In this document: positions 11,103 to 61,991 of the stretch, piece by piece
How positions within the stretch are numbered: position 1 is the stretch's first letter
Layout: the number at the start of each line of letters is the position of its first letter
DNA from: Legionella micdadei
GTDB lineage: Bacteria > Pseudomonadota > Gammaproteobacteria > Legionellales > Legionellaceae
Direction: 5' to 3'
NCBI RefSeq assembly: GCF_000953635.1
Contig: NZ_LN614830.1
Span: forward strand, 2,657,001-2,721,000
Length of the DNA stretch: 64,000 bases
The notes under the pieces: model-generated
Told to the model about the DNA's origin: nothing
Seen by the model: only the letters and a program-made list of their open reading frames with translations
Database searches by the model: none
Made by a program: the position numbers and the translations under genes

Positions 11103-13898
11103 ATGAATAGGGAAATGATTGAATTATTAATATCTTCCAAAAAAAATGACGAAAAAATAATAAAAAAACTTACGGTATGGTTCACAAATAATAGTTTACT
11201 AATCGATGAAAAATACCTATTTGATCGAAACGTTTTTCACCTTTTAATAAAAAAAAATAAACTCAATGTCATTGAAGCGCTTTGCTCGAATCCGAATTGG
11301 CGAAGAAAAGCGTTAGAGCCTGACAAATTCGGTAATACCATTTTGCATTATGCAATTAAAAGTTCTAAAGCAATCGACCTAGGCCGATTAATAAAATTAT
11401 TCCCAGAACTGATCAATAAACCAAATAACTCTAAGAATACACCGCTGCATGAGGCTGTTTTAGCAGAAAAAATCGATGCAGTTAAGCTTCTTTTAGAACA
11501 TCCTGCAGTTGATCGATCCATTAAAAATCATACAGAAAGTACAGCCTTAAGCTTGGCTCGTGATAGAAAAGAATTAGCACCTCTCTTTTTTTATGTTGAT
11601 CCCTCCTTAATAACTTCACTGAACTTAAAATCCCGCATAACCCCTGAAACCGTTGATGGAAATTTTAGGGCTTTCTTCCCTTTAATGTGTTCAAAAAGCC
11701 GATCCAGCCCCCGCTCGGCACTATCATCATCGCCCAGAGCTAAGGAATCTACTTCCTCTACTCTCACTCTTTTCGCCTCTAGGGCTGCTGAAAATAACCA
11801 AAAGGCGATTGAGGAAGCTGTGATCAGGGCAAGGCAATTTTTAAAACTTATTGCCCGTGCGCATCAAGAGAAAGAGTCATCTATAAAATGTCAAAACTTT
11901 CAACACGAGTTCAATGTTTTATGTGTGAGTGATCCCTTTGTCGAACATCTAAAATTAAGCAGTGAAGAGCAAACTCTGGGCACTTACGAAGTGATAAGCA
12001 ATTCCCTAAGAACATTACATCCTTTGGCTGATAAAAAATATTCTACCTATCAAAAAGAAGCTTATTACTTGCAAACATCACTCATTCCATTGCTACTTAA
12101 TAATATTCAAAGAGTTGATCTCGAACCCCGAGGAAAACCTCAAATTGACATTTCTGAAGCGACTAATGAAGAGCTACTAAACCATTTATGGCTTTTAACT
12201 GCTGGTCAATCCGATTTTGATAAACAGCGGGAGATTAACTTTGCAGTCATAAATGAAAGCGCTATTAGTTTGCTAAGCAGCTTTCCATTAGAAAAAATAT
12301 TGATTCAATTAAGAGTCTTATATTCATCTTTTGACTTTAACCAGAAATTAATTGCAAATTTCATTCTCGTCCAACTACTTCTTTATTCCGGAGTAAATGC
12401 TTTTCCTTTTGGGCCTGCATTTCACATGCAATTAAGGTTTTTCTGTAAGAAAAATGTGAATTTCAATACAGGGTTAGCCGAATTGGGTGAAGAATTAAAC
12501 ATTATTCTACAAATGGCAGCTAAACTATCTTCTGCATTATTAGATGAGCCGATAATCAGAAATTTTAGTAACTTAAATCGGCTCGTTCAATTCACTTTTG
12601 TGAGTAAATTACATTCTTTTGATCAATTAGTTGATTGTGCAATCGCATTTCCCCGTGAGGAAAGAGCAAAATACGTTCAATCTATAGCGAACGAATTAAG
12701 AATGTTGACTATGATGTTTTATCAGGAAGTGTCAATTTGTGAATTTAATAACTGTTATTGGTCGAAAGAAGAAACGAAACATCTTTCTCCATCAATTGTA
12801 AAATTCACAGACTATTTTAATAAATTAAGTTTCTATTTTATAGAAAAAATATTGAATCAACCAAGTGATAACACTAGAAACGCATTACAATTTCTAATTG
12901 AGCTATCGCAAGCCCTATGCGCTCTCGGCGAGGAGAAATACCCTGATCTTAATCATCTACAAGTTTTAGCAAGTGTGTTTAGCAGTAGTAATATTTCCAG
13001 ACTAACTGTGGAGTTAGGAAAGCTATCTACAACAGATCGAAAAACAATTGAAGAAATTTGCACAATAGCTAGCAATTTGAAAAACTATCAATATATGAGA
13101 GAAATATGCACTACACACCGGACTGCCCTGCCCTTTTTAGGCCTCTTTCTCACTGATGTCACTTTCGCCCGGGATGGGAACGAGAATGCACTGCATCGAA
13201 GAGCTGTTGTGGGGGAGATCTTAAAGACTATTCTTGAAATAAAACTAAAAATTAATTCTGAATGTCTTATTTTTGTAACCGATTTACCGCAATTTATAAA
13301 TACATATCCCTTGCCAGAAACGGGAAATTTGGAGGATAAACTCTATATTTTATCTCGCAGAATACAACCTAGAAAAACCGATCATATTGATTTTGATAAG
13401 TTGCGATCAGAAAATCCAGGGGTAGTTATTGATCAACTTTCTTCTTTTCTAAAAGAGGATATTTTGCCTAGTTCATTCTTCGATAAAAAATCACATCCTC
13501 CTAGCCAGTTTGCCGAGGTATTTATAAGCTTTTTTGAAAATTCCCTTAGTCACTTTCAAGCACAACATAATGATTCTGATGTTGCTAACTTGATGGATAA
13601 ATTCCAAAATGCTGTCGAAAATATTTTTCGGATAAATAATACTTACTATTTTCCTAAAAAGCTTTCAAGCAACCTTAATCCCATATACTACTCCGGTAGA
13701 ATACAAGAACTGAGAAAGCAGGTGCTAACTGATTCATCTCAAAATCAAAGAAAAATGACTCCAGCGAAAGTTGTTTTAACCTCAATTAAAAGAAAAAGCA
13801 TGGATCCCTTAAAAGGGTATTCTTTATTTTCATCGAAAATGGGAGATGAAAAAGAGGATAAAGCCAATTCCGCAGTGCCAACAACTGAGATTCCTTAA
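11103..13898 (+). CDS. Ankyrin-repeat RasGEF-domain protein, likely Dot/Icm effector
   Basis: This 931-residue protein has about three ankyrin repeats near residues 40-150 (GNTILHYAIKSS, KNTPLHEAVLAEKIDAVKLL), a Ser-rich linker (about 195-225), then a region resembling a RasGEF N-terminal module and CDC25-type catalytic domain (about 350-760). The clearest stretch is SSSNISRLTVELGKLS, KNYQYMREICTT and LPFLGLFLTDVTF (about 625-690), matching the core of eukaryotic Ras guanine-exchange factors. Legionella is known to carry RasGEF effectors (LegG2), and ankyrin effectors are common there. The acidic tail MGDEKEDKANSAV resembles E-block secretion signals. It stands alone with long AT-rich flanks. 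Effector status is inferred. Confidence 0.75.
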   Translation: MNREMIELLISSKKNDEKIIKKLTVWFTNNSLLIDEKYLFDRNVFHLLIKKNKLNVIEALCSNPNWRRKALEPDKFGNTILHYAIKSSKAIDLGRLIKLFPELINKPNNSKNTPLHEAVLAEKIDAVKLLLEHPAVDRSIKNHTESTALSLARDRKELAPLFFYVDPSLITSLNLKSRITPETVDGNFRAFFPLMCSKSRSSPRSALSSSPRAKESTSSTLTLFASRAAENNQKAIEEAVIRARQFLKLIARAHQEKESSIKCQNFQHEFNVLCVSDPFVEHLKLSSEEQTLGTYEVISNSLRTLHPLADKKYSTYQKEAYYLQTSLIPLLLNNIQRVDLEPRGKPQIDISEATNEELLNHLWLLTAGQSDFDKQREINFAVINESAISLLSSFPLEKILIQLRVLYSSFDFNQKLIANFILVQLLLYSGVNAFPFGPAFHMQLRFFCKKNVNFNTGLAELGEELNIILQMAAKLSSALLDEPIIRNFSNLNRLVQFTFVSKLHSFDQLVDCAIAFPREERAKYVQSIANELRMLTMMFYQEVSICEFNNCYWSKEETKHLSPSIVKFTDYFNKLSFYFIEKILNQPSDNTRNALQFLIELSQALCALGEEKYPDLNHLQVLASVFSSSNISRLTVELGKLSTTDRKTIEEICTIASNLKNYQYMREICTTHRTALPFLGLFLTDVTFARDGNENALHRRAVVGEILKTILEIKLKINSECLIFVTDLPQFINTYPLPETGNLEDKLYILSRRIQPRKTDHIDFDKLRSENPGVVIDQLSSFLKEDILPSSFFDKKSHPPSQFAEVFISFFENSLSHFQAQHNDSDVANLMDKFQNAVENIFRINNTYYFPKKLSSNLNPIYYSGRIQELRKQVLTDSSQNQRKMTPAKVVLTSIKRKSMDPLKGYSLFSSKMGDEKEDKANSAVPTTEIP

Positions 13899-15058: not shown

Positions 15059-15242
15059 CTTAATCTCCCGCATTAGTTATTTAATTAAAAAATGAATGAA
15101 TTAATTTTTATGATATTTATAAAATATAGACCAATTTCATCAAGAGAAATGTAGATTGTTATAAGGATTTATTTAACTCAATTATATTTCAATATAAAAG
15201 CTATACTATTTTTATCAAGTGAGCTGATGCCGGAGGGCATTG

Positions 15243-16676
15243 ATGGCTTATCATAAAGATCTGCATACCCCGACATCCAAGATTGATTATCAAGAGTTTG
15301 ATCGGCATTTATTTAAAGAAACTAGCTTGCTTGAAGAGTGGTTTATTGAAGAATATTTCATGGAGAGGGAATTAGCAATTGGCGCTGAAATTGAATTTTT
15401 CCTTCTTGATAAAGAATATAACCCTCTACCAGAAAATTTAGCTTTCATTGATCGAGTGAATCAGCCCTTTTTAATACCTGAAATCGGTGCATGGCACTTG
15501 GAAATCAATACTTCACACTTTAGTCTGTATGGCGATTGCTTTAGTTCTTTGCATAAGAATATTTTGGAGTTATGGAATCATTGTTTAAGCATTGCTAACG
15601 ATCGTAATGCTTATTTAGCTTTAATTGGAACCTTACCAACTGCTACTGAAAGATGCCATTTACCAGAATATATGACCAATAAACCAAGGTATCATATCCT
15701 CAATTCCTGCACAGCAGCCCTGTGTGGAGGACAGATATCCAAAATTCATATCGAAGGTCCTAAAGAAGCCTTGATAATGAGGCCTAAATCCTTAGTAATC
15801 AATGGCCTTATCTCAGCATTCCAAATGCACATTCAAATTGGGTTAAGCCAATCTGTGCAATACTATAATGTTGCCCAAGCACTTGCAGGGCCTATCTTGG
15901 CCATTTCTGCTAACAGCCCTTTTTTATTGGGGCATCAACTGTGGAGTGAAACGAGAATAGCTTCATTTGATCAATCCTTGACATTGCGCTTATTTGATCG
16001 TGATAGAGGATTTAAATGCTGTTTATTCGGAACTAATTATTTGCATAATTCTTTTTTCGAACTTTTCGACCAAAATTTCCAATATTTCCCTCGTCTTCTA
16101 CCCGAGGTTTTTCCTGAGTTTCCACCAGAAAAGATGTTTCATGTGAGAAGGCAAAATGGTGTGGTTTATCGTTGGAATCGCCCTGTGATTGATTTTAACC
16201 CCAATTTAAAACCACATTTACGCATCGAACACCGTGGCCCCCCTTCTGGTCCAACCATTATTGATATGATGGCAAACGCTGCTTTCTTTTATGGGCTTCT
16301 TCATTATTTTGCAATCCAATCAGTACCCATCGATCACCTCTTGCCTTTTCATGATGCAAGACGGAATTTTTTTAATGCAGCACGCTTTGGTCTTCAAGCA
16401 AAATTTAAGTGGTTTGCCAATCGCGAAGTCAATGCTCTCACTCTTCTTGAAGAATTGCTTCCCCTAGCCTATAAAGGGCTAGAAGCACTCGGTATTACTT
16501 CAGACGATATCCAGGGTTATTTAGGAATTATCAAACACCGGATAAAATCGAAAATTAACGGAAGTCAGTGGCAAAGTAATTTTATCGAAAAATATGGGAA
16601 AAATTTCTATAATTTGATGACAAGTTATTTGGAAAATCAATACCAAGAGCGTCCTATCTCTGAATGGAAAGCATAA
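15243..16676 (+). CDS. GCS2-family glutamate-cysteine ligase-like enzyme
   Basis: The 477-residue protein shows the carboxylate-amine ligase (GCS2) pattern: the early metal/substrate strand IGAEIEFFLLD (about 46-56), EIGAWHLEINTSHFSL, and a late HLRIEHRGPPSGPTIIDMMANAAFF. These enzymes join the gamma-carboxyl of glutamate to an amine, usually cysteine. The same genome has a dedicated gshA of another family at about 37 kb, so a glutathione-independent role is likely, for example an EgtA-like step or another gamma-glutamyl product. The start is the ATG at 15243, six bases after GGAGG. It leads a tight three-gene operon (gaps of 6 and 4 bases). Confidence 0.8.
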   Translation: MAYHKDLHTPTSKIDYQEFDRHLFKETSLLEEWFIEEYFMERELAIGAEIEFFLLDKEYNPLPENLAFIDRVNQPFLIPEIGAWHLEINTSHFSLYGDCFSSLHKNILELWNHCLSIANDRNAYLALIGTLPTATERCHLPEYMTNKPRYHILNSCTAALCGGQISKIHIEGPKEALIMRPKSLVINGLISAFQMHIQIGLSQSVQYYNVAQALAGPILAISANSPFLLGHQLWSETRIASFDQSLTLRLFDRDRGFKCCLFGTNYLHNSFFELFDQNFQYFPRLLPEVFPEFPPEKMFHVRRQNGVVYRWNRPVIDFNPNLKPHLRIEHRGPPSGPTIIDMMANAAFFYGLLHYFAIQSVPIDHLLPFHDARRNFFNAARFGLQAKFKWFANREVNALTLLEELLPLAYKGLEALGITSDDIQGYLGIIKHRIKSKINGSQWQSNFIEKYGKNFYNLMTSYLENQYQERPISEWKA

Positions 16677-16682
16677 GGAATA

Positions 16683-17702
16683 ATGATGAATACTTCTTCT
16701 GCTGCTAACCTTAAAAATCATCCTCTATTCATTGATTTTTCTCAAGAGGAATACTCTTTTATTCGCGAACACAGCCAAACTAAACACTTTCGAGCCGGTG
16801 AAACAATCATGTCTCAAGGCTCTTATGGGGACGAACTTTACCTACTCCAAAAAGGCAGAGTGCTCGTGTACGTTACTTTGCCCGGCGATACGCAAAAACT
16901 GGCAACGAAACTTGATAGCGGCCAAATTTTTGGGGAGGTTACCTTTCTAACACAAACACCGATTACCGCTTCAATTGTTGCTGAGAACGATTGCACTTGC
17001 TTAAGCTTTTCTCGAGAAATTTTAAATACACTTCATTTTTCCCATCCTGTCACTGCTTACAAATTCGAAACCAATATCATCCGGCAAACCCGAGAAAAAA
17101 TTATCAATCAAATTCTTCTACTTATTTCGTTACTCGGAAAAATAGCTGGACAGGCAGATATTTCATCACAACACGCGCTTCGCCTCTTTAATCATAAAGC
17201 TCAGTGTAAAAAATTACCGAACGCTAATTTAGACTTTAATTACCTTAAACAAATCCATTTTTTTTCTGCCTTACAGGAGAAAGATTTTCTTTTCTTATTA
17301 TCGTTCATGTCTTTTCGCCAATATGATCGTGGCTATCCGTTTCAATTTCTTAACTCAGTACACTCGCGGTTGTGCATTCCGTATTCAGGTGCGGTAATGA
17401 TGTTTATTAAACAAGATGAAGTATTAAATAAATCTATCGCAGTTTCCGGCATAGGCGAAATCTTTTTAGAAAATCCAACGAGTCTCTTTCCTGAATTCCA
17501 GCAATACGTGGCTTATCTCACCAGCGAAAGATCTACAATTCTAGAATTGGATTTTGATGCGTATTACAAAATTCGTGATCTTAATCCAGGCCTTTTCTTT
17601 CATATTAGCCGAGAGATAAATCATCACATTGCCCGTTTAGTTTACATTGTAAATCGGCAATTTGTCAGAATTAATTGTGAATATGAAAACTTGATAGGAT
17701 AA
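16683..17702 (+). CDS. Protein with two cyclic-nucleotide-binding-like domains
   Basis: Residues about 15-120 form a cyclic-nucleotide-binding (cNMP) beta-roll: FRAGETIMSQGSYGDELYLL, KLDSGQIFGEVTFL. The phosphate-binding cassette normally ends in an Arg that contacts the cyclic phosphate; here it reads TQTPITASIVA and the Arg is gone. A second, more diverged copy spans about 187-320. There is no helix-turn-helix, so it is not a Crp-type transcription factor. It sits between a GCS2 ligase and an amidotransferase in one operon, and may regulate or scaffold them. ATG at 16683 or 16686 is possible; AAGGA suits the second. Confidence 0.7.
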   Translation: MMNTSSAANLKNHPLFIDFSQEEYSFIREHSQTKHFRAGETIMSQGSYGDELYLLQKGRVLVYVTLPGDTQKLATKLDSGQIFGEVTFLTQTPITASIVAENDCTCLSFSREILNTLHFSHPVTAYKFETNIIRQTREKIINQILLLISLLGKIAGQADISSQHALRLFNHKAQCKKLPNANLDFNYLKQIHFFSALQEKDFLFLLSFMSFRQYDRGYPFQFLNSVHSRLCIPYSGAVMMFIKQDEVLNKSIAVSGIGEIFLENPTSLFPEFQQYVAYLTSERSTILELDFDAYYKIRDLNPGLFFHISREINHHIARLVYIVNRQFVRINCEYENLIG

Positions 17703-17706
17703 GACT

Positions 17707-18627
17707 ATGTGCAGAGTATTAATTTATCTTGGTCAAAATGAATCAAGCATTTATGACTTACTTTACGGCCCAGACAATGGTTTAGTTCACCAAAGTTATG
17801 CTCCGCAGCTCATGAAGCACATTCAAAATCTTGCCGGACTTGGATTTTGTGCTTGGTCTAAGTCATCCCATTATCCTGAAGAGCCTTATCTTTATAAAAC
17901 AACTTGCTTACCTTTTTTTGATAAAAATCTTTTTCGCTTATCAAAAAAATTAACGACCAATTGTATGGTTGCCCATGTGCGTGGAGTGGAATATAAAATA
18001 ATAGAAACCGTCTCAGAACAAAATGTCCATCCATTCAAATTCGACGATGCTCATTTCGCTTTAGCCCACAATGGCAGTTTAGCGCACATGGACCGCCTGA
18101 AAGTGGCATTGGTCAAATACATCAAACCTCAATTAATGAGCATGATTAAGGGTACAACAGACAGTGAATGGGTTTATGTGTTGTTTTTATCTCAATTTAA
18201 AGATTTCAGAGAAAATGTGCCAATGGAAGAAGCGTTTCAGGCCATTATTAACACCTTTGAAATTCTAGGAAAAGCAAGGAAAGAATGCGGCATCGAAGAG
18301 GCTTCACCCGTTAATTTATTCATTACGAATGGCGAATATCTTTTTGTTACCCGTTTTGTTTTCGACTTTGGCTGCAACACGTCTAATGTACAAAAAGCAT
18401 TCCTTGGATATCATAGTCTTTGGCTAACAGTAGGTGAGAGCTATAGTATAGTGGATGGTATTTATAAAATGCATGGAACAGGGATAAGGCGTAACATTCT
18501 TTTTGCTTCAGAACCATTGTCCACCGACCGTACAACCTGGATAGAGTTGCCTGAATATTCAATTACCCAAGCATGGATCCAAGATGAACAAGTGAAATTT
18601 AGAACGTTTGATTTAGTGGTAAATTAA
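17707..18627 (+). CDS. Class II glutamine amidotransferase (EgtC/YafJ/Dug3-like)
   Basis: This 306-residue N-terminal-nucleophile amidohydrolase begins MCRVLIYLG, with Cys2 as catalytic nucleophile after Met removal. The signatures AHVRGVEYK and NVHPFKFDDAHFALAHNGSLA match the glutamine-amidotransferase type 2 fold. No synthase domain is attached, as in YafJ, EgtC and Dug3. EgtC removes glutamate from a gamma-glutamyl intermediate in ergothioneine synthesis, and Dug3 takes part in glutathione breakdown. Pairing with a GCS2 ligase suggests linked formation and removal of a gamma-glutamyl bond. No EgtB or EgtD homolog is nearby. It ends head-to-head with the SDR gene (stops overlap). Confidence 0.8.
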   Translation: MCRVLIYLGQNESSIYDLLYGPDNGLVHQSYAPQLMKHIQNLAGLGFCAWSKSSHYPEEPYLYKTTCLPFFDKNLFRLSKKLTTNCMVAHVRGVEYKIIETVSEQNVHPFKFDDAHFALAHNGSLAHMDRLKVALVKYIKPQLMSMIKGTTDSEWVYVLFLSQFKDFRENVPMEEAFQAIINTFEILGKARKECGIEEASPVNLFITNGEYLFVTRFVFDFGCNTSNVQKAFLGYHSLWLTVGESYSIVDGIYKMHGTGIRRNILFASEPLSTDRTTWIELPEYSITQAWIQDEQVKFRTFDLVVN

Positions 18628-29412: not shown

Positions 29413-30402
29413 CTATCCAGGCCGTATTTGAGCTATCTCATCCATTTCACGTCTGTATTGGGCTTCTTTTGAAAAAAAAGTTCGACAAAGCGGTTTTAAT
29501 CCTCCACTTAAAACGTCAGTGAATTTTTGGGAAAAATGTCGCTCAAACCAACCCGCTTGGTTGTGGGTACAAATTTCAACTATCCCTAGAATCATCTCTC
29601 TGTCAGTACTTCCCAAAGCAATTTTATCCTGAAGTTCTTGGTACAACACATGAACAGCGTTATATCTTTTAATTATTTTTAACTGTCTTGGAGTAGGCTC
29701 TTGAGAAGGAATTAGCTCTCCATGGTTATCAACTTCAATCCCTTCTAGTCTCAACTTCTCAAGTAACCGAAGCCTAAATGTTTTGACGGTTTCTTTGAGT
29801 GATTTTGCCTGTGCTACACCATGCACCAAAGGACAGGAGAAGTAAATTTTATCCACCTTGAGCTTTTCTTGCATTTGCTGAACGCTTTTGTAAAAATTGG
29901 CAAAAACGGGATCAGCCATTGCGGCTATCTGTTTTAAGAGCCCATCCTCATTTAAAGGCACTAGCATCCTGTCCATCCACTCAGATTCGCCCATATTTCT
30001 TTCCACAAGTTTAGAAAAATCTGAGTTATCTGACAGGAACCCCTGAAACTGTATCAGATTGGCAATAGACACCGAATCCACTGTCGTGCGGAAATCCCTG
30101 TCTCTTTTGATCGATAAAACAATGCTTATTAACGAAAGATAGGTAATAAGTGTATAACCTAATTCACCATTGGCAAGTTGATTATGGTATTGGATGTAGT
30201 TATATAAAAAATTAATAGCCGAAATATCATTTTCATTGATATCAGTAAGGCTTAATTCATATCCACCTAACTGGAGAAGTTCATCTGCCCCAATAGGCTC
30301 CTTTATTTGGGCATACTTTTGACTAATATAATGGGTTAATTCGAGAGCTTTGAAATAATTTCCGTCCCTCAAAGCATCCACATATTCTTGTGTGTTCATC
30401 AT
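29413..30402 (-). CDS. Unknown mostly helical protein
   Basis: A 329-residue protein with no recognised domain, signal peptide or membrane segment. Predicted content is largely alpha-helical with a hydrophobic patch near residues 80-100 (GYTLITYLSLISIVLS). AGGGA is placed for ATG at 30402 or 30399; the upstream frame to 30453 lacks a ribosome site. It stands alone with AT-rich flanks, as many Legionella effector genes do, but nothing in the sequence proves secretion. Confidence 0.6.
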   Translation of the reverse strand: MMNTQEYVDALRDGNYFKALELTHYISQKYAQIKEPIGADELLQLGGYELSLTDINENDISAINFLYNYIQYHNQLANGELGYTLITYLSLISIVLSIKRDRDFRTTVDSVSIANLIQFQGFLSDNSDFSKLVERNMGESEWMDRMLVPLNEDGLLKQIAAMADPVFANFYKSVQQMQEKLKVDKIYFSCPLVHGVAQAKSLKETVKTFRLRLLEKLRLEGIEVDNHGELIPSQEPTPRQLKIIKRYNAVHVLYQELQDKIALGSTDREMILGIVEICTHNQAGWFERHFSQKFTDVLSGGLKPLCRTFFSKEAQYRREMDEIAQIRPG

Positions 30403-30566
30403 TCGTCCCTGTTTATAATCAACTATTGATCTATTTTGACAATACAATGCCAATTAAATCAATATATAAGCAAAAAATTAGCGCATTTTATGAGGCCATT
30501 TTTAGATTTAATCAGATCAATGCACTATTCTTATAATGAGTTACAAAATTAGGAGAGATAAGAATC

Positions 30567-33527: not shown

Positions 33528-35996
33528 TCACAATTCATTCAATCTTAAAGATTGGGATAGAGTCCAAAACCCTCTCCACGGATCGGTTTTTAACGCTTGT
33601 AAACGCTTTAATACAGTACGGATCGTATAAAATGTGTCTTCATATTGTTCACTAAGTTCATCCCACCGAATGGGCGTAGCGATGGGGGCATGAATTCTGG
33701 CACGAGTTGAATAAGGTGCGATTGCTGTGGCGTCACGCTGATTGCGCAGATAATCAATAAAAATTTTTCCCTTCCGCTTAGCTTTTGTCATTTTACTGAT
33801 GTATTTTTCAGGATTTCTTTTTTCTAAAAATTCAACAAAAACACGGGTAAAGTTCTTTACTTCATCCCAGTCATATTCTGCTTTAACGGGTATAACGATA
33901 TGAAGCCCTTTTCCACCTGTTGTTTTAACAAAAGAGGTTAATTCATACTGCTGTAACTGCTCTCTAATATCAAAAGCTGCCTCAACTACCATTTTCCATT
34001 CCACATCAGGAGCGGGATCTAAATCAAAAATCAAAATATCAGGATGCTCAAGATGGTTAATCGTGCTTCCCCAAGGGTGAATCTCTAAAACGCCCATTTG
34101 CACTAAATTTAGCAATCCTTCTTTGTTATCCAAGTATAAGTATTGTTCGACTTCACCTTTTTTATTTTTAACAGGAACTTCATGTAATTTTGTCAATCCT
34201 TTATTAAGGTGTTTTTGATAAAAACATTCTTTATAGTTATTAGGACAACGTACTAAAGTTAAAGGCCGATTAAGGATGTACGGCAGAATATAATCACTAA
34301 TTTTATCGTAATAATCATAAAGATCTTGTTTGCTAATTTTATCTTCCTTATAAAGAATTTTTTCGGGACTGGACAATTTCTGAGGATTACCCATCATAGC
34401 AGGTGGCTCTGATTCGATTGATTCCAACGAGCGTTCTTTTTCTTTAATAACCTCTTGCGCTTTCTTATCCGTGCGAAGTCCTTTAAAGCTAGGATGCCTT
34501 AGTCTTCCTTCGTCGGTCCATTCTGAAAACTCTACTTCAACAATCAATTTCGGTTTTACCCAAGTTGCTGTTTTCGCTTCAGGCGGGAATTCATTGAAAG
34601 GGTTTTTTTTAATTTCAAGCGGTTTGAGTTCATTGTAAATTTCTTCTAGTGATTTATCAGTAAATCCTGTCCCGACATTCCCAATAAACACTAACTCCTT
34701 ATCTTCATTAAAAACACCTAAATAAAGCGAACCAAAATGTTTTCGAGAACCCTTTGGTTTTGTAAATCCGCCAACCACAAATTCCTGTCGCTTAGAACAT
34801 TTAATCTTAAGCCAAGATTTACTACGCTTCCCTAGGTATCGACTATCGGCCCGCTTAGACACAATCCCTTCCAGAGCAAAATCGCATGAGTGTTTAAACA
34901 TGGCTTCGCCTTGACCAACAACATGATCACTGTATTTAATGGACAATGGGGCTTCTTCGAGTATTGTGGTTAATATTTTTTTTCGCTCGATAAGGGGTAA
35001 TGAACGAAGATCATATTGTTCAAGGTATAACAGATCAAAAATATAATAAAAAAGAGAAGATTGTTTTTCTGATTTTATTGAGTTTTGCAATAATTGAAAA
35101 TTAGAGCGGCTCCTTTCGTCTAAAGCGACAATTTCGCCATCAAAAATACCATTTTCTACTGGCAATTTTTGCAAATCAGGAATGAGCTGGTGAAACTCCG
35201 TTGTCCAATCCTTTTGATTGCGGGAAACAAATCGAATCTTGTCTCCTTTTTTAAATGCAACCATGCGGTAACCATCAAATTTAATCTCATGAAGCCAATT
35301 ATCCCCTTTAGGTGGTTTGTCAACCAAAGTGGCCAATTGTGCAGAAATTGTTTTAAGAAAAGGGCTAGTCTGTAAACTTGCTTTTAATTCAGGATCAATA
35401 AAATCAGCCCTCGGGTTGGCTTTATTTTTACTCCAAACACCCTGGTAATTGCGGCTAATCTCCTCTATTGATTGATCATTTAGAACACTTCGGGGTTCTT
35501 CTTTCGTAACATCATACTCTGAGAAGGACTTGGCAAATTCATCATCATATTTAATGAGGAACCATTGATTTTGTTTAAAACGAATTAGATCCCAACGCCC
35601 TTGTATTTTTTTACCGTTGAGTTCAAAACGAAGATGGCCTTGGTGATAGGCCTCTTCCGGATCATCATCCAGCGGAACCCAATGCCCTTGATCCCAAAGC
35701 ATTACTGTTCCTCCTCCATACTCCTCTTTAGGAATAATCCCTTCAAAAGTGCCATATTCAATAGGATGATCTTCAACATGGATTGCGAGCCGCTTTACCT
35801 TAGGGTCAAGACAAGGCCCTTTAGGTACAGCCCAACTTTTAAGGACGCCTTTAAGCTCTAAACGAAAATCATAATGAAGGTGGGTTGCAGCATGTTTTTG
35901 AACAACAAAAAGAAAATGTTTGGTTTTATGCACATGCCCTTTGGGCTCTGGCGTTTTTTTAAAATCCCTTTTTTGTCGATAGCTCTCTAGGCTCAT
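33528..35996 (-). CDS. ligD: DNA ligase D (phosphoesterase-ligase-polymerase)
   Basis: An 822-residue three-domain LigD in the order phosphoesterase (about 1-190; KHAATHLHYDFRLE carries the metal-binding His and Asp), ATP-dependent ligase (about 215-520; adenylated Lys in HEIKFDGYRM), polymerase/primase (about 560-810; LIFDLDPAPDVEW, TTGGKGLHIVIP). LigD repairs double-strand breaks by end joining with Ku. No ku gene lies in this window. ATG at 35996 has AGGATA upstream. The gene lies 44 bp downstream of gshB on the same strand and may share its transcript. Confidence 0.93.
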   Translation of the reverse strand: MSLESYRQKRDFKKTPEPKGHVHKTKHFLFVVQKHAATHLHYDFRLELKGVLKSWAVPKGPCLDPKVKRLAIHVEDHPIEYGTFEGIIPKEEYGGGTVMLWDQGHWVPLDDDPEEAYHQGHLRFELNGKKIQGRWDLIRFKQNQWFLIKYDDEFAKSFSEYDVTKEEPRSVLNDQSIEEISRNYQGVWSKNKANPRADFIDPELKASLQTSPFLKTISAQLATLVDKPPKGDNWLHEIKFDGYRMVAFKKGDKIRFVSRNQKDWTTEFHQLIPDLQKLPVENGIFDGEIVALDERSRSNFQLLQNSIKSEKQSSLFYYIFDLLYLEQYDLRSLPLIERKKILTTILEEAPLSIKYSDHVVGQGEAMFKHSCDFALEGIVSKRADSRYLGKRSKSWLKIKCSKRQEFVVGGFTKPKGSRKHFGSLYLGVFNEDKELVFIGNVGTGFTDKSLEEIYNELKPLEIKKNPFNEFPPEAKTATWVKPKLIVEVEFSEWTDEGRLRHPSFKGLRTDKKAQEVIKEKERSLESIESEPPAMMGNPQKLSSPEKILYKEDKISKQDLYDYYDKISDYILPYILNRPLTLVRCPNNYKECFYQKHLNKGLTKLHEVPVKNKKGEVEQYLYLDNKEGLLNLVQMGVLEIHPWGSTINHLEHPDILIFDLDPAPDVEWKMVVEAAFDIREQLQQYELTSFVKTTGGKGLHIVIPVKAEYDWDEVKNFTRVFVEFLEKRNPEKYISKMTKAKRKGKIFIDYLRNQRDATAIAPYSTRARIHAPIATPIRWDELSEQYEDTFYTIRTVLKRLQALKTDPWRGFWTLSQSLRLNEL

Positions 35997-36040
35997 GGAG
36001 TATCCTGGTTTTCTTACTAGTATAGCCAAGAGCCAACGTT

Positions 36041-36991
36041 TTACGCCGAAACTAAATCTGCCAGGCAACGTAGATAATCACCCGCAATATCCAAATTGGT
36101 TTCGTCTGCGATTTCGCGAATACACGTCGGGCTAGTCACATTAATTTCTGTTAAATAATTTCCGATGACATCGATTCCAACGAAATAAAGCCCCATCATT
36201 CTGAGCGTAGGAGCAATTTGCTGGCAAATCCATCTATCCCTGTCAGTGAGTGGCACCACTTCTCCACGTGCTCCTGCAGCAAGATTCCCGCGCAACTCAC
36301 CCTTAGCGGGGATACGAGCCAGAGCATAAGGCACTGGCTCTCCATTGATCAATAAAATGCGTTTATCCCCCGAAGTAGTAATTTCAGGAATGTATTGCTG
36401 CGCCATAATGCTAACCGTTTGGCCTTGAGTGAGTACCTCCAAAATGACTGATAAATTTTCTGCTTTTTTATCCACATGAAAAACTGAATTTCCGCCCATT
36501 CCCTCCAATGGCTTAAAAATCACATTTTGATGTTCTTGCCAGAAACTGCGCAGACGGCTCATGTCCCGACTCACCAAAGTCTGTGGGCAACATTGAGGAA
36601 AATTGAGCGTAAAAAATTTTTCGTTAGCATCACGCAAGCTGCTTGGTTTATTCGCTACGAGTACTCCATCACGTTCGGCAAGTTGGAGGGCATAAGTGGC
36701 GTAGATGTATTCCATGTTAAACGGAGGATCTTTGCGCATTAAAATAATATCAAACTCACTTAATGGTTGCTCCCCCACTCGCCCTATCTCAGCCCAACTG
36801 CTCAATTTTTCATCCCTGACTCGAATTGAGGAGACTCGCGCATAAGCGAACCCATCCCGACAATACAATTCTTCTTGTGTAAAATAAACACAATCCCACC
36901 CAAGTGTTTGCGCACTCTTAATCATGGCAACGGTGGAATCCTTATAAGCCTTTATTTTATGAATAGGATCCATTAAGACAGCAAGTCTCAT
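36041..36991 (-). CDS. gshB: Glutathione synthetase
   Basis: This 316-residue ATP-grasp enzyme joins gamma-glutamylcysteine and glycine. It begins MRLAVLMDPIHKIKAYKDSTVAM and contains LMRKDPPFNMEYIYATY, VIFKPLEGMGGNSVF, SGDKRILLINGEPVPYALARIP and INVTSPTCIREI, all characteristic of bacterial GshB. GGAGG precedes the start; the ATG overlaps the gshA stop (TGATG), so translation is coupled to gshA. Confidence 0.95.
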   Translation of the reverse strand: MRLAVLMDPIHKIKAYKDSTVAMIKSAQTLGWDCVYFTQEELYCRDGFAYARVSSIRVRDEKLSSWAEIGRVGEQPLSEFDIILMRKDPPFNMEYIYATYALQLAERDGVLVANKPSSLRDANEKFFTLNFPQCCPQTLVSRDMSRLRSFWQEHQNVIFKPLEGMGGNSVFHVDKKAENLSVILEVLTQGQTVSIMAQQYIPEITTSGDKRILLINGEPVPYALARIPAKGELRGNLAAGARGEVVPLTDRDRWICQQIAPTLRMMGLYFVGIDVIGNYLTEINVTSPTCIREIADETNLDIAGDYLRCLADLVSA

Positions 36992-38286
36992 CATTCGCCT
37001 CCAATCGCGGCAATTTCTTTTGCTGCTGCAAGCGCTGCCAAGCGTGCAATTACGCCGTAAGCATAAAATCGATTTGGGCATTCGATGACGGCCAAATCAT
37101 TGCGCGGCATATTGCAAGCTTGGGCAAAAGCAAGCGGTTCAAAATGCATGCCTGGGGCATTGAGATTTTCATCTGTACCTCGCCCCTGGTGCACACGATA
37201 AAACCCTCCGACAACAAATTGTCCTATCATATAAACAACAGGCTCAGCAACCGCGCCATTAGGCATTGTTTCATAGGTGTATACACCTTCTTGAACCATC
37301 ACCCTATCGACTTTGCGCCCCCCTTTACTGGCAGCCATGCGCGTTCGTTGTTTACGATTGAGCTGGCGTATTTCTTCTCCATCGTGCACCATGATCACGC
37401 TCATGCCATAAGTGCCATTATCTGCCTTAACCACCACAAAAGGTCTGTCTGAGATACCATAAGTAGCGTATTTATCCCTTATCATCTCAAGTAATTGATC
37501 GACTTGGTAGGCTAAATTATCAACCCCTTCTTGCGCCATAAAATCCACACCCTCCACTGCAGTGAAATAAGGATTAATTAACCAAGGATCCATATCAACT
37601 AATTTGGCAAATTCAGAAGCAACTTCGTCAAAAAAATGGAAATGATTCGATTTAAGCCTTGACGCCCAACCTAACTTTGGTGTGGGTCTGATGGGCTGAT
37701 TTAAATTCTGTAAAATCTCAGGGATACCTGATGACAAATCATTATTTAGCAAAATCATGCAAGGCTCAAAATCTTGCAATCCGACTTTATCTTTAAAGCG
37801 CTGTAGTGGCTCCATGAGTAGGGTCTGCCCCTCATCGGTAGTGATTTCTGTTGCTGTCGTTACTTCGGGATTTAAACTGCCAATACGCACAACAAATCCT
37901 GCTTTCATAAAAATATCGCGTAAAACCCCTAAACTAAGCAAATAATACTTATTGCGCGTATGACTCTCCGGGATGAGCAAAATATTTTTGCATCTTGGCA
38001 AGTAATCAACCATTACAGATTGAGCCGCCTGAATACATAATGGCAAAAAATCACGATTCAGATTGTTAAAGCCAGCAGGAAATAAATTAGTATCAACCGG
38101 AGCTAATTTAAATCCAGCATGGCGCAAATCCACTGAGGAGGTAATGGGGGGAGGCGTTTCTTGCCATTTTTGCCGAAACCAAGATTCAATTGTAACAGTT
38201 TGTTTTAAAATTATTTTCTCTACATGGTGCAATGGGCCGCAATGGGCTGTGGTTAAATGAGGCACAGGAAAATTTTCATGATGCAT
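36991..38286 (-). CDS. gshA: Glutamate-cysteine ligase, Acidithiobacillus (GshA_ferroox) type
   Basis: A 431-residue enzyme of the GshA family first described in Acidithiobacillus ferrooxidans, different from E. coli GshA and from GCS2. Visible family features are SSVDLRHAGFKLAPVDTNLFPAGFNNL, the ATP-grasp-like FVVVKADNGTYGMSV, and the carboxy-terminal FYRVHQGRGTDENLN. It makes gamma-glutamylcysteine for the overlapping gshB. GGGGGAGA before the ATG at 38286 decides the start; the upstream frame has no site. Confidence 0.92.
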   Translation of the reverse strand: MHHENFPVPHLTTAHCGPLHHVEKIILKQTVTIESWFRQKWQETPPPITSSVDLRHAGFKLAPVDTNLFPAGFNNLNRDFLPLCIQAAQSVMVDYLPRCKNILLIPESHTRNKYYLLSLGVLRDIFMKAGFVVRIGSLNPEVTTATEITTDEGQTLLMEPLQRFKDKVGLQDFEPCMILLNNDLSSGIPEILQNLNQPIRPTPKLGWASRLKSNHFHFFDEVASEFAKLVDMDPWLINPYFTAVEGVDFMAQEGVDNLAYQVDQLLEMIRDKYATYGISDRPFVVVKADNGTYGMSVIMVHDGEEIRQLNRKQRTRMAASKGGRKVDRVMVQEGVYTYETMPNGAVAEPVVYMIGQFVVGGFYRVHQGRGTDENLNAPGMHFEPLAFAQACNMPRNDLAVIECPNRFYAYGVIARLAALAAAKEIAAIGGE

Positions 38287-38475
38287 ATTCTCTCCCCCTA
38301 ATAAGCTTATCAAGCGATGTTAACTCAGGTTAAGGGTTGAATAAACCAAAACTTGTTGCAAATTCGCTGTGTGTTCCTGTGATTTCGCTTCTCGCGAAGC
38401 TCGTCAGCAGGATGCTTTATGTCCTTTTTCTGTTATCATGGCGGCAACCGAAACGAAATACAGAGAGCATAGGAC

Positions 38476-56067: not shown

Positions 56068-56249
56068 TTAAGCCTCATCAATTGGTAAAATCCAATACAA
56101 AGAAAGAGACTGCTTATCCAGTTTAACTTTTTTGGAATTTCTCCCTGGATCTTTATCTACAATCCACTTAGATTCATTCAACGCCCGTAATATGCAATTC
56201 AAATCAAATCCCGTGGCCGCTTCTTGGAGTGCTGATGAATTAAATAAGT
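56068..56249 (-). pseudogene. Displaced C-terminal part of the DUF927 protein
   Basis: In the neighbouring frame the sequence continues smoothly as FYLFNSSALQEAATGFDLNC, then ILRALNESKWIVDKDPGRN and ends at 56068, as expected for the natural end of the DUF927 protein. The frames join at the A4 run 56250-56253 (T4 on the coding strand); one extra T would restore a single frame. Confidence 0.75.
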
Positions 56250-57983
56250 AAAACGACCTTGTTGTGTATCTTTCCAATAACCAGCACGATCTCTGACGAC
56301 AGGTCGTTGATCAATGTTATCTCCTTGATAAGTAGCCCTTGCTTGCTCAAGCCCAGAAAATCGACTGTCTCCATGCCTATCAATAAAATGACGTATGCCC
56401 TGAAGAATTTGACGTGTTTCTGTTTGGCCTTGGCCTCTAAAATTACGCCATGAATTAAATAACTCAAGGATTGCATTTAAAGCTTCTCCTTCCTGCCATC
56501 CAGTCAAGCCATATTCAGTGGCTTTCTCACCAGCCAAAGCAATAAGAGCAAATAATCCTGCCGCTCGACTTTCCACACCGTCTGAAGTGGGAAATAAATC
56601 ACAAAACTCAGCATATATTTCAGGAAAAGAATCTTTATCCTTCAAGAGATTTTCAATAAATGCAGGACCACTTGATCCATAAAACAAGCTTGTGGCTTGT
56701 TTCATAGAGTCAGCAAAGGCTCGGCCATCACTTAATCCATGCAGATTATCAAAGACGCCATACGTACGATCAGTTGCTGGAATATTAAGTAGCCTGACTT
56801 CTTGTCCTGCTTTAATTTTCTGCCCAACCTCTTGCATATGCGCAGATAATGTCCGTTCTCCACTCGATAAAATTATTGTGCGCCACCTAAAAGAATCACG
56901 CGCTCCACCATTACGCTTAGCCCGTTGCTTCCCTTGCCCATTTGCTAACGCGTAGATGATGGCACCAATCTCACGAGGATCACATTCGCTGATTTCATCT
57001 AAGACCAGTAAGCTATCATTTAGTGCAGCTGCTGTAGCTTCCAACCCATTCGCAGTGGCACGCCAGGTACGGACATAATTGGGGCCACCCCATACGCTTG
57101 CAGCGACTTGCAATGCGGTTGTCTTTCCATGACTTGATTTGCCGATTAAATGAATACCGCCACCCCCCGCAGTTTGTTGTTTTGCTTTCAATAAAAGTGG
57201 GGCTGCAAATGCAGCTGAGACGGACAGCAGCAAAATTGGATTTCCACTACAACGAAGAGCAACTTGTTCACGCCAGCTTCGGAGATCACCTTTTTGAATG
57301 AAATCATTGTGTGCGGCATATTCTGATTGAAAACGCACATTAGCACCCCCAATAGTTTTATTCGGCATTACAAAAGATTGCCCATCACTATGCCATCCCG
57401 TACTTGAAGCAGCTGTTATGCGGCATTGAGGATTTTGTTGCATTAACCAATTATTTAAATATTTTTTTGCATCGAGATTTATTTTGACGCCCAAGTTTAA
57501 GAGTTCACCACGCATTTCATCGCCATTACCTCTTAAAAGATGCATGGGCATTGCCCACTCGCGCCATGTACCAAATGGCTGAATAAAACGTAACAACAGA
57601 CCAAACGATTCGTTAAGCTCATCAGCAGAAATTGCATCTGAATGGATGGGTGAGCACACCCAGATATCGATAGGCTTAGGTTCTTGCCCACCTGTAAAAC
57701 CATGCCAATATAAACCTGGTTGTTTTTGATGACCTTCGATTAAAAACCAATCGTCATATACCATAAAACCAGGTCGTTTGATTTCTGGTTCAGCAGATAT
57801 TTCAGGTGGAACATGATGAGGTGAAATTGCCTCTAATTTAAAACTAGAAGGATCTTGTAAATCCTCTGTGGATAAGGTTCCTTCTGTTCCCTGAATTATT
57901 TCCTCAAGGGAACCGTTGAAATGCGCAGTATCGTTGGCTATTCCCTCGGTTCCCTCAGAGATTTTTCTATCTAACTCAAACAT
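56199..57983 (-). CDS. DUF927 primase/helicase-like protein, 3' frameshift
   Basis: About 594 residues in the visible frame. It has the DUF927 ATPase seen in P4-like and plasmid replication modules: RITAASSTGWHSDGQSFVMP, Walker A in LIGKSSHGKTTALQVAAS, Walker B DSLLVLDEISECDP, and a LSSGERTLSAHM sensor region. The last 17 or so residues (about from TYLIHQHSKKRPRDLI) are out of frame; the expected end lies in the adjacent frame to 56068. ATG 57983 has GGGGGTG upstream and overlaps the primase gene by 13 bases. It probably drives replication of the element after excision. Confidence 0.85.
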   Translation of the reverse strand: MFELDRKISEGTEGIANDTAHFNGSLEEIIQGTEGTLSTEDLQDPSSFKLEAISPHHVPPEISAEPEIKRPGFMVYDDWFLIEGHQKQPGLYWHGFTGGQEPKPIDIWVCSPIHSDAISADELNESFGLLLRFIQPFGTWREWAMPMHLLRGNGDEMRGELLNLGVKINLDAKKYLNNWLMQQNPQCRITAASSTGWHSDGQSFVMPNKTIGGANVRFQSEYAAHNDFIQKGDLRSWREQVALRCSGNPILLLSVSAAFAAPLLLKAKQQTAGGGGIHLIGKSSHGKTTALQVAASVWGGPNYVRTWRATANGLEATAAALNDSLLVLDEISECDPREIGAIIYALANGQGKQRAKRNGGARDSFRWRTIILSSGERTLSAHMQEVGQKIKAGQEVRLLNIPATDRTYGVFDNLHGLSDGRAFADSMKQATSLFYGSSGPAFIENLLKDKDSFPEIYAEFCDLFPTSDGVESRAAGLFALIALAGEKATEYGLTGWQEGEALNAILELFNSWRNFRGQGQTETRQILQGIRHFIDRHGDSRFSGLEQARATYQGDNIDQRPVVRDRAGYWKDTQQGRFTYLIHQHSKKRPRDLI

Positions 57984-58888
57984 GCTACACCCCCATGATG
58001 AGCTGCAAGCCAACAACTTAAATCATTAAAATCTTTTAAGGACGTTGGTACTCCCTGAGGCCATATTGGTTTACTCAGTAACGCTCCTGAGGCAATCGCT
58101 GCATCACGCCCTTTAGTTAAACCAGGATTGTTCGGAGTTAAACGATCATCATCCGCACAGATAATCAACTCTACGTTGGGTAAGCAATAACGAATCGTTG
58201 TGGCCACCGCTTTTAAATTTCCTGCGTTGCAAGCAGCAATCACACAATAGGTTGGGTTTTTCTCAGCGAGTGTTGCACCAGTAGCGAATCCTTCACAAAT
58301 TAATATTTTTTTATCATAAGCTGGATAATACCGGACAGGTATGAAATGTTCTTTTATTGCTCCATTTGATAAAAACCGCTTTGCGCCGTGTTCATTGATA
58401 TACTGCAAACTCCATATTTTCCTGTCAAAATCGATTACAGGTAAAACAATTTCTTTACCATATTGACGGGCATAAAATGGTAATATGCGTTTTTTTAAGA
58501 GATAGGGATGATTGAGATCTGCCTTGGAATAGCCTATCCACAAATGTTCAGCATGCAAAGCGGCCTGAAGTTGTTCCTTGACCTGCATTTTCTGACGCAT
58601 CTTACAACTTGATTTGATACGCTCCACTTGTTGTTTACGTTCTGACGCACCCATATAGCCTTGCTTTTTATAACTCCATTTTAAATAACCTCCTTTTTTC
58701 CAACTGCCGTATATTCCGCATGGTACACCACCAAGATGTAATACATACCATCCATTTTTAGAGCCAGATTTATCTCCTTCAATATGAAAACGATGCAATT
58801 TCCCATCGGCAATTATTTCATTTGGGGGCGTAATTCCATTGGCTAATAACTCCGCTTGGAATTCTGGAATAATTTGATTAAAATCCAT
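57971..58888 (-). CDS. Toprim-domain primase-like protein
   Basis: A 305-residue protein. The N-terminal part (about 1-80) resembles the P4-alpha/DUF7146-type primase start (DGKLHRFHIEGDKSGSKNGW). The Toprim domain follows (about 190-300): ILICEGFATGATLAE with the catalytic Glu and LIICADDDR with the metal-binding aspartates. No intact zinc finger is visible. With the DUF927 gene, which it overlaps by 13 bases, it forms the replication module of the element. Confidence 0.85.
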   Translation of the reverse strand: MDFNQIIPEFQAELLANGITPPNEIIADGKLHRFHIEGDKSGSKNGWYVLHLGGVPCGIYGSWKKGGYLKWSYKKQGYMGASERKQQVERIKSSCKMRQKMQVKEQLQAALHAEHLWIGYSKADLNHPYLLKKRILPFYARQYGKEIVLPVIDFDRKIWSLQYINEHGAKRFLSNGAIKEHFIPVRYYPAYDKKILICEGFATGATLAEKNPTYCVIAACNAGNLKAVATTIRYCLPNVELIICADDDRLTPNNPGLTKGRDAAIASGALLSKPIWPQGVPTSLKDFNDLSCWLAAHHGGVACLS

Positions 58889-59416: not shown

Positions 59417-60202
59417 TTATTTTGACAGTAATAAAGGTGCAATTTGTTCTCGGTAGATAGGTAATAAATTTTTCCACTTGGATACATTATCATGAAACTC
59501 CATAGCCAACTCAATGAGAGCTTCAATCTTGTATAGCGCCACTAAATCATTATTTTTTGCCTTGGCATATTGTTGATAATAGTACTCAAGTGTTTTCTCT
59601 TGGATATCTAGGGAGTCTAAAAATATTTTCAAATAGGTTTTAAATTGGCTACTTTCGTAATTTTGTGTAGGGGGTGTAATGCCTAAAGCTTCAGCAATAA
59701 AAATTAATTCAAAATAAGCATGCTTAATAATCCTTTCCTTATTAAATGGGCTACCTTGTTTTCGATTAAAGTTATTTACCAATTGGTTCAATTGATCAAA
59801 ATTCCATGTAAAATGAAGAGAAGAATAATTAACGCCCAGGTATGAAAACATCACGAGCTCGTTATCAATAACCTGTTGATGAGTCTCGTCCATAAGCTTA
59901 ATAGCTTTATTCATATGTTTTATAGCCTCATTAATTTTTTGCTTCAATTTTGATAAATCCGTTTTTTCTGAAATTGTTATTAAATATTGATGAAGATGCC
60001 ATGAGCCTATAATATGCAGCAGGTGCTCTGATGTTACTTTGTATTCTGATATTTGGTTTAAGGAGACTTTGATAAATAATTGCTCCTCAAGATGAGCAGG
60101 AGTTACGGGTACATTATAATTGAGATAAGTATCTTTCTCCATTTTCTCTCTAAATATAAGCGCCTCTGATATGAGAGAAGCATCTACCCACTTGTTATCC
60201 AT
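59417..60202 (-). CDS. Unknown island protein between alpA and integrase
   Basis: A 261-residue helical protein starting MDNKWVDASLISEALIFREK. There are no signal peptide, membrane segment or recognised domain. It contains HLLHIIGSWHLHQYLITISE and a C-terminal helical half (LVALYKIEALIELAMEF). Its start overlaps the end of the integrase gene by eight bases, so it is probably co-expressed with integrase. It may be cargo such as a defence or regulatory gene; no evidence decides. Confidence 0.6.
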   Translation of the reverse strand: MDNKWVDASLISEALIFREKMEKDTYLNYNVPVTPAHLEEQLFIKVSLNQISEYKVTSEHLLHIIGSWHLHQYLITISEKTDLSKLKQKINEAIKHMNKAIKLMDETHQQVIDNELVMFSYLGVNYSSLHFTWNFDQLNQLVNNFNRKQGSPFNKERIIKHAYFELIFIAEALGITPPTQNYESSQFKTYLKIFLDSLDIQEKTLEYYYQQYAKAKNNDLVALYKIEALIELAMEFHDNVSKWKNLLPIYREQIAPLLLSK

Positions 60203-61394: not shown

Positions 61395-61447
61395 AAACAA
61401 CTACCTCAACTAAATAGCACTCCTTGAGCCTCTTAGTAAGCCAAATG

Positions 61448-61468
61448 CTTACCCAAGATCTTACCCAA
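61448..61468 (+). promoter_or_regulatory. Paired CTTACCCAA sites beside the integrase
   Basis: Two CTTACCCAA words with a three-base spacer match the pair at 52251-52271. They lie between the integrase start and the tRNA-Leu attachment core, where arm-type sites are expected. Confidence 0.55.
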
Positions 61469-61603
61469 AGTGTGTGCGGATTAATACGAAAAATTACGTT
61501 TAGTTGAGAAGAAATTTAGGGGGGTAAATCACTATTATTGTGTTATTAATCAAGGAATTAAGTACTAATTTGAACTCTTGCGAACAATTACAAAAACTGT
61601 AAT

Positions 61604-61620
61604 TGGTGCCCAGGGCCGGA
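61604..61620 (+). other. tRNA-proximal attachment site
   Basis: TGGTGCCCAGGGCCGGA is the 3' end of the intact tRNA-Leu gene (reverse strand, with CCA) and is identical to 52177-52193. Confidence 0.85.
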
Positions 61621-61692: not shown

Positions 61693-61698
61693 CATATC

Positions 61699-61912: not shown

Positions 61913-61915
61913 ATT

Positions 61916-61991
<76 letters not shown>

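What the first reader, a model, noticed from the sequence alone, without database searches (positions are those of the whole stretch)
15243..18627. Three-gene gamma-glutamyl module: GCS2 ligase, cNMP-like sensor, class II amidotransferase
Seen: three genes with gaps of 6 and 4 bases, preceded by a strong ribosome site. The first matches GCS2 ligases, the third matches EgtC/Dug3-type amidotransferases. A separate gshA-gshB operon lies at 36-38 kb, so glutathione synthesis does not need the GCS2 enzyme. Known: EgtA and EgtC form and remove a gamma-glutamyl group in ergothioneine synthesis, and Dug3 acts in glutathione breakdown. Inference: the operon makes or recycles an unidentified gamma-glutamyl metabolite, with the central protein as an allosteric or assembly factor. 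This is the best candidate here for an undescribed system.
Basis: partly seen in the sequence, partly recalled or inferred. Interest (0 to 1): 0.7.

Follow-up and report, generated by a model that had tools for sequence, protein, structure and literature searches.

The report
Three-gene glutamyl on-off operon
A Legionella operon joins an enzyme that probably attaches glutamate to a small molecule, an enzyme that probably removes it, and a sensor-like protein between them; the set recurs in many related bacteria, two different attaching enzymes can fill the first slot, and what it acts on is unknown.

Summary
In detail: three genes (15243-16676, 16683-17702, 17707-18627), gaps of 6 and 4 bases, GGAGGG ribosome site, separate gshA-gshB. 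The genome is a Legionella near L. maceachernii. The trio is a real unit. In 59 loci with this amidotransferase type (all 58 matches in 143 Legionellales genomes, plus one outside), the cNMP-like gene is its neighbour in 59; a GCS2-type ligase lies directly upstream in 35, in 12 contexts. Two remotely related ligases fill that slot (14 like the window's, 21 YbdK-type), following the amidotransferase clade. The central protein is two tandem cNMP-fold domains lacking the usual phosphate-binding arginine (0 of 59 in that column). Ergothioneine synthesis is unlikely: four genomes without egtB/egtD keep such an operon; two with them lack it. In 26 non-actinobacterial loci outside Legionella the ligase's relatives lie beside (19) or are fused to (4) an unrelated zinc amidohydrolase, or carry CBS domains (2). 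Best reading: ligase and hydrolase make and cleave the same gamma-glutamyl amide, gated by the sensor-like protein. Substrate and antagonism are inferred. Eight literature searches found no description.

The parts
15232..15237 (+). GGAGGG ribosome-binding site, 5 bases before the ATG
   Evidence: read directly
15243..16676 (+). Divergent GCS2-type carboxylate-amine ligase (477 aa)
   Evidence: Pfam GCS2 30 bits; profile-profile match to YbdK-type ligases 98.6%, 341 columns; model pLDDT 91.4, best fold match YbdK 1r8g
15381..15395 (+). GAEIE, the GxExE metal/ATP signature (residues 47-51)
   Evidence: G47, E49, E51 invariant in 28 of 28 aligned relatives; signature described in PMC2588565 (passage)
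16683..17702 (+). Tandem cNMP-fold (CNB) protein without catalytic or DNA-binding domain found (339 aa); proposed sensor or assembly factor
   Evidence: Pfam cNMP_binding 76.5 bits; halves homologous, 99.4%; usual phosphate-binding Arg absent in 59 of 59 at the aligned column
16782..17036 (+). First cNMP-fold domain (Pfam, residues 34-118)
17238..17642 (+). Second, degenerate cNMP-fold domain (about residues 186-320)
   Evidence: profile-profile match of the two halves
17707..18627 (+). Class II (Ntn) glutamine-amidotransferase-like protein (306 aa), proposed gamma-glutamyl amide hydrolase
   Evidence: Pfam GATase_4; C2, N41, G44, R92, N122, G123, D152 identical in 60 of 60
17710..17712 (+). 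Codon of Cys2, predicted catalytic nucleophile
   Evidence: position read; invariant in 60 of 60; role recalled from class II amidotransferases
36041..38313 (-). Context only: gshA-gshB (glutathione synthesis), separate from the trio
   Evidence: NCBIfam TIGR02049 and glutathione synthase models over cut-off

Best explanation
A co-transcribed module for regulated, reversible gamma-glutamylation of a small amine or amino-acid metabolite. Shown by comparison: the three genes are one unit, the ligase has the GCS2 fold and signature residues, the amidotransferase keeps the class II active-site residues, and the middle protein is two cNMP-fold domains. Inferred: (1) the ligase uses ATP to join the gamma-carboxylate of glutamate to the amine; (2) the amidotransferase-like protein uses Cys2 to hydrolyse that same gamma-glutamyl amide, so the two enzymes set the level of the conjugate; (3) the middle protein, having lost the usual cNMP phosphate grip, binds some other ligand, or the enzymes themselves, and biases ligation against hydrolysis. 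The identity of the substrate is not known. My odds: real functional unit about 0.95; ligase and hydrolase acting on the same bond about 0.5; CNB protein as ligand-responsive regulator rather than pure scaffold about 0.5.
For: Unit: CNB gene adjacent in 59 of 59 loci, ligase directly upstream in 35 of 59, in 12 contexts. Two remotely related ligase types in the same slot, each tied to its own amidotransferase clade: 13 of 17 window-type ligase, 21 of 37 YbdK-type, 1 of 3 window-type, as expected if ligase and hydrolase share a substrate. The ligase's relatives elsewhere are coupled to a different amide hydrolase: of 26 non-actinobacterial loci outside Legionella, 17 have an AstE/AspA-family gene directly downstream by script and 2 more (L007, L015) by inspection, 4 are fused to it, 2 carry CBS domains, 1 (L036) neither; all 23 AstE-like regions keep an HGNE motif and a later D-x-H. 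So ligase + amide hydrolase, and ligase + sensor-type domain, arose more than once with unrelated folds. Precedent: AtdA1 ligates glutamate to aniline and GAT-like AtdA2 hydrolyses the product back (PMC11335346, passages).
Against: No activity, substrate or complex is shown. 22 of 59 CNB-amidotransferase pairs have no ligase directly upstream. Lone window-type ligases exist (G005; a second copy in G009). The 61 actinobacterial relatives show no AstE-like neighbour (2 at contig edges). A class II amidotransferase could equally release ammonia from glutamine. The CNB structure prediction failed (pLDDT 36.5), so its role rests on sequence. Ligase-type sharing within clades partly reflects common descent.
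Confidence: 0.5

Rival explanations
1. Glutamine-dependent amidation: the amidotransferase releases ammonia from glutamine and passes it to the ligase, which amidates an unknown carboxylate; the CNB protein bridges or gates the two.
For: Class II active-site residues are intact; GS-fold partners with amidohydrolases exist, as in GatB/GatE (PMC2588565, passage).
Against: The ligase's relatives pair with AstE/AspA-type hydrolases (23 of 26 loci), which by recalled chemistry are not glutaminases; the CNB-amidotransferase pair often stands without an adjacent ligase (22 of 59).
Confidence: 0.2
2. Protect-process-deprotect pathway like EgtA/EgtC: the ligase caps a substrate, an unlinked enzyme changes it, and the amidotransferase removes the glutamate.
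For: Third protein's best NCBIfam match is EgtC (107.9 bits); gamma-glutamyl capping is known for ergothioneine (PMC6154287, passages).
Against: No processing gene recurs beside the trio; the 35 trios lie in 12 contexts. Recurrence of neighbours was judged only within three genes on each side.
Confidence: 0.15
3. Glutathione or gamma-glutamylcysteine turnover: the ligase supplements gamma-glutamylcysteine and the amidotransferase degrades glutathione, as Dug3 does in fungi.
For: GCS2 fold; class II amidotransferase like Dug3 (recalled; one paper on a fungal DUG3 seen in listings).
Against: gshA-gshB are present separately; no Dug1/Dug2-like partner was seen among immediate neighbours, but none was searched for in the genome.
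Confidence: 0.1
4. The trio supplies the EgtA and EgtC steps of ergothioneine synthesis.
For: egtB and egtD lie together elsewhere in the genome (L157).
Against: G010, G013, G015 and G017 have no EgtD match at E 0.001 and no EgtB match over the cut-off (remnants or weak matches only) yet keep a ligase-CNB-amidotransferase trio; G011 and G002 have EgtB over cut-off and EgtD at 283 and 294 bits (cut-off 290.9) yet lack this amidotransferase type. Another amidotransferase in the genome scores higher for EgtC (190.2 against 107.9 bits).
Confidence: 0.03

Closest known systems
EgtA/EgtC (ergothioneine synthesis)
   Same: GCS2-type ligase plus class II amidotransferase-like gamma-glutamyl hydrolase
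   Different: EgtC cut-off not met (107.9 against 218.65 bits); no EgtA model match for the window ligase; presence does not follow egtB/egtD; a CNB protein is added; EgtC chains in the PDB show only 26 bits or less
AtdA1/AtdA2 and NpaA1/NpaA2 (aniline, 1-naphthylamine)
   Same: ligase attaches glutamate to an amine and a GAT-like enzyme hydrolyses the product back (PMC11335346, passages)
   Different: the ligase is glutamine-synthetase-like (GoaS) per that paper; the cluster carries a dioxygenase and no CNB protein; I did not compare the proteins directly
YbdK family carboxylate-amine ligase
   Same: same fold; a YbdK-type enzyme fills the same slot in 21 loci; the one of those tested is over the equivalog cut-off (529 against 425 bits)
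   Different: the window's ligase does not match the YbdK equivalog and is about 21% identical to that type in the profile alignment
GCS2-like ligase coupled or fused to AstE/AspA amidohydrolase in proteobacteria (seen here; no name found)
   Same: direct relatives of the window ligase (31-38% identical) coupled to an amide hydrolase
   Different: hydrolase of another fold; no CNB gene in those loci at E 1e-10
Ligase + amidotransferase-like thiol peptidase neighbourhoods predicted by Iyer and colleagues 2008 (PMC2588565, passages)
   Same: same idea: carboxylate-amine ligase beside an amidotransferase-like peptidase, proposed for peptide metabolites
   Different: a different ligase family (example CJD_1902); no CNB protein mentioned in the passages seen

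Membership tests
GCS2 ligase family (Pfam PF04107) | score over Pfam's cut-off | tested here: met
   30 against 21 bits, though over about 50 residues
GCS2 ligase family (Pfam PF04107) | GS/GCS fold and GxExE signature | tested here: met
   1r8g, 1tt4, 2gwc, 3ig5 lead the fold search; G47, E49, E51 invariant in 28 of 28
GCS2 ligase family (Pfam PF04107) | ATP-dependent ligation at glutamate's gamma-carboxylate | not testable with these tools
   no assay
YbdK equivalog (NF010040) | equivalog cut-off | tested here: not met
   window ligase: only a 24.6-bit match to a related model (cut-off 371), none to NF010040
Class II glutamine amidotransferase (Ntn) | Cys at position 2 and conserved Arg, Asn-Gly, Asp | tested here: met
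   C2, R92, N122, G123, D152 in 60 of 60; roles recalled
EgtC (TIGR03442) | equivalog cut-off 218.65 bits | tested here: not met
   107.9 bits
EgtA/EgtC system | co-occurrence with egtB and egtD | tested here: not met
   22 genus genomes: four keep a trio without egtB/egtD, two have egtB/egtD without this amidotransferase
Canonical cyclic-nucleotide receptor | phosphate-binding cassette with Gly-Glu and Arg | tested here: not met
   no Arg in 59 of 59 at the aligned column (one row, G484, has Arg one column later); Gly in 43 and Glu in 39 of 59; the distant G789 relative keeps G, E and R; meaning of the residues recalled
Glutathione synthesis (GshA replacement) | needed because no other gshA exists | tested here: not met
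   gshA and gshB at 36-38 kb
DUG glutathione degradation | Dug1/Dug2-type partners | not tested
   not searched in the genome
Known anti-phage defence systems (PADLOC) | match to a system model | tested here: not met
   ligase and amidotransferase none; CNB protein only weak matches to cNMP domains of Pycsar proteins, best 23.5 bits

The most novel reading that the evidence does not exclude
A previously undescribed class of regulated gamma-glutamylation cycle: a ligase and an antagonistic hydrolase joined by a sensor-type domain, assembled more than once from unrelated parts (window-type GCS2 or YbdK as ligase; class II amidotransferase or AstE/AspA zinc enzyme as hydrolase; re-purposed tandem cNMP-fold protein or fused CBS domains as sensor), acting on an unknown amine metabolite.
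Probability: 0.35. Interest if true: 0.75.

Novelty: new variant of a known kind. Interest (0 to 1): 0.6.

Why it matters
YbdK and many GCS2-type ligases have no settled physiological role (recalled). A slot-for-slot swap between a YbdK-type and a divergent GCS2 ligase beside the same CNB-amidotransferase pair, and fusions of the divergent ligase to an amide hydrolase, give a concrete, testable guess for what such ligases do: make a gamma-glutamyl amide that a dedicated partner removes. It would also add a cNMP-fold protein that has lost the usual ligand grip and seems tied to an enzyme pair rather than to DNA.

Tried and rejected
Ergothioneine (EgtA/EgtC): rejected by the co-occurrence pattern in 22 genomes and by score. 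Glutathione synthesis: gshA-gshB present. Phage defence: PADLOC gave only weak cNMP-domain matches. Plain cAMP/cGMP receptor: cassette Arg missing.

Led nowhere: PDB sequence searches with the ligase, alone (one 11.5-bit match taken as chance) and as a profile (none at E 0.1); structure of the CNB protein, only two sequences usable, pLDDT 36.5, not searched further; plasmid searches gave few records, the useful one being L. adelaidensis; promoter scan no better than shuffles. Distance correlations between partners are high (ligase-amidotransferase r 0.96 in 14 and 0.87 in 21 loci), but species kinship alone could give this, so I do not lean on it. The amidotransferase tree is a quick search with a very long branch (G433) and 17 of 56 inner branches drawn open.

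Rows dropped before counts: L104 (ligase only, no amidotransferase), L194 (same plasmid as L259) and L005 (its contig has the length of the G020 contig in L103, so taken as the same genome). Among the 21 YbdK-type rows L258 is a 90-residue piece and L261 and L247 are short (265 and 337 residues); L202's CNB gene is read as two pieces and was used as found. The 80 ligase loci are the best of 131; the other 51 were not seen. Whether G491, G495, G496 and G449 (pair without adjacent ligase) hold a ligase elsewhere was not tested.
Full report
What is there. The gaps are 6 and 4 bases and a GGAGGG lies 5 bases before the first ATG. gshA and gshB are separate at 36-38 kb.

The ligase. Pfam recognises it only weakly (30 bits), but 28 relatives share G47-x-E49-x-E51 and 39 other invariant positions. 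A profile comparison ties it to YbdK-type ligases (98.6%, 341 columns, 21% identity), and its confident model (pLDDT 91.4) matches YbdK 1r8g, then plant, yeast and bacterial glutamate-cysteine ligases. It is not a YbdK by the equivalog cut-off. The genome has three other GCS2 proteins, one a YbdK over the cut-off.

The amidotransferase. Cys2 and the residues expected for glutamine or glutamyl binding are intact in 60 of 60 sequences. It scores half the EgtC cut-off. It carries N-L-A-G (one row, G433, has N-L-T-G) where the PDB's EgtC shows N-A-D-G.

The CNB protein. Pfam sees one domain; its N- and C-terminal halves align as profiles with 99.4% probability, so it is a tandem. The arginine usual in cyclic-nucleotide pockets is missing in 59 of 59 at the aligned column, with one row (G484) carrying Arg at the next column; the distant relative in G789 keeps it. 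The protein is the fastest-changing of the three (mean differences 0.59 against 0.39 and 0.33 in the 14 trios).

Conservation of the unit. A search of 143 Legionellales genomes gave 58 matches to the amidotransferase at E 1e-30, in 53 genomes and 6 of 33 genera, all in the window's family. I examined all 58 and one more in G114, another family. The CNB gene is the neighbour in 59 of 59: upstream in 58, downstream in G114, whose contig ends there. A ligase lies directly upstream of CNB, same strand, in 35: the window's type in 14, the YbdK type in 21. In 22 there is none, one is cut by a contig end and one is G114. In one of the 22 (G468) a YbdK-type gene lies on the other side, opposite strand. 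The 35 trios fall into 12 flanking contexts. In six of the eight members of one ligase-less clade the YbdK gene is 19-54 kb away on the same contig, in the other two on another contig. Outside the order, 398 genomes of the phylum gave two further matches at E 1e-30 besides the window's genome: G789 with a CNB gene overlapping the amidotransferase start and no ligase beside it, and G697 without a CNB gene but next to a poly-gamma-glutamate hydrolase family gene. A search of 385 genomes of G789's class found no other at E 1e-35.

Two ligases, two clades. In the amidotransferase tree (quick method) a 17-row clade (support 96) holds 13 window-type ligases and no YbdK, a 37-row clade (99) holds 21 YbdK types and no window type, and a 3-row clade (99) holds one window type. 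So the ligase was exchanged, or acquired separately, and then kept with its partner clade.

Ergothioneine. In 22 genus genomes EgtD matches in 18 and full-length or near full-length EgtB over cut-off in 17 (G006 shows only a fragment). G010, G013, G015 and G017 lack both apart from weak or broken EgtB matches, yet hold a trio; G011 and G002 have both and lack this amidotransferase.

Relatives of the ligase elsewhere. One search kept the best 80 of 131 loci. Among 26 non-actinobacterial loci outside Legionella (18, 8) an AstE/AspA-type amidohydrolase gene is directly downstream in 17 by script and in 2 more by inspection, fused in 4, and 2 ligases carry CBS domains (Pfam run on one, L118; the other, L081, by similarity to it). 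In 61 actinobacterial loci none was found; in 17 of the 79 loci outside Legionella an EgtC-like gene lies in the same stretch, near genes I take by eye for an egt cluster. No pair among the 26 exceeds 84% identity.

Mechanism. The simplest common denominator is a ligase with an antagonistic amide hydrolase, plus a sensor-type domain. Zinc AstE/AspA enzymes and a cysteine amidotransferase share no fold but both can cleave an amide to an amino acid or amine (recalled chemistry). AtdA1/AtdA2 show that such pairs exist (PMC11335346, passages). I therefore favour a make-and-cleave cycle over an ammonia relay, but no product is known and my odds for the shared bond are about one half.

Literature. 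Eight searches of open PMC papers returned nothing that I recognised as describing the trio or the ligase-AstE pair; I judged by titles and abstract openings and read passages of three papers. Most subscription papers are not held, so absence from print is not established. PMC2588565 predicted a similar pairing for another ligase family.

Noticed in passing
window 11103-13898 (+): 931-residue protein with ankyrin repeats and a RasGEF domain, looks like an injected effector; described only.
   Followed up: no
window 29413-30453 (-): Protein with an Lpg0393 VPS9-like domain, effector-like; described only.
   Followed up: no
window 33528-36068 (-): Full LigD-type NHEJ DNA ligase next to gshB-gshA, overlapping gshB by 28 bases.
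   Followed up: no
window 59417-61991: Tyrosine integrase (60195-61400) beside tRNA-Leu, tRNA-Cys and tRNA-Gly genes, with a DUF927 protein at 56199-58016: probably the end of an integrated element.
   Followed up: no
L081 and L118: Relatives of the window ligase fused to CBS domains, an independent coupling of ligase and sensor-type domain.
   Followed up: partly
L014, L016, L019, L115: Relatives of the window ligase fused in one reading frame to an AstE/AspA-type amidohydrolase.
   Followed up: yes
L271 6627-8189: In G697 a related amidotransferase without CNB gene sits next to a poly-gamma-glutamate hydrolase family gene.
   Followed up: partly
L111 7680-9131 and L104 7148-8578: Lone window-type ligases without CNB-amidotransferase beside them (second copy in G009, only copy in G005).
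   Followed up: partly
17 mycobacterial-type loci such as L020: The 34%-identical ligase relative lies in the same stretch as an EgtC-like gene and what look by eye like egt genes.
   Followed up: no
L113, L114 and similar: In gammaproteobacteria the ligase-AstE pair often follows a nucleotidyltransferase gene (NTP_transferase in L113), by eye MurU-like and next to an AmgK-like gene.
   Followed up: no
L202 5430-6462: The CNB gene of G015 reads as two pieces, a break or an assembly error in that draft.
   Followed up: no
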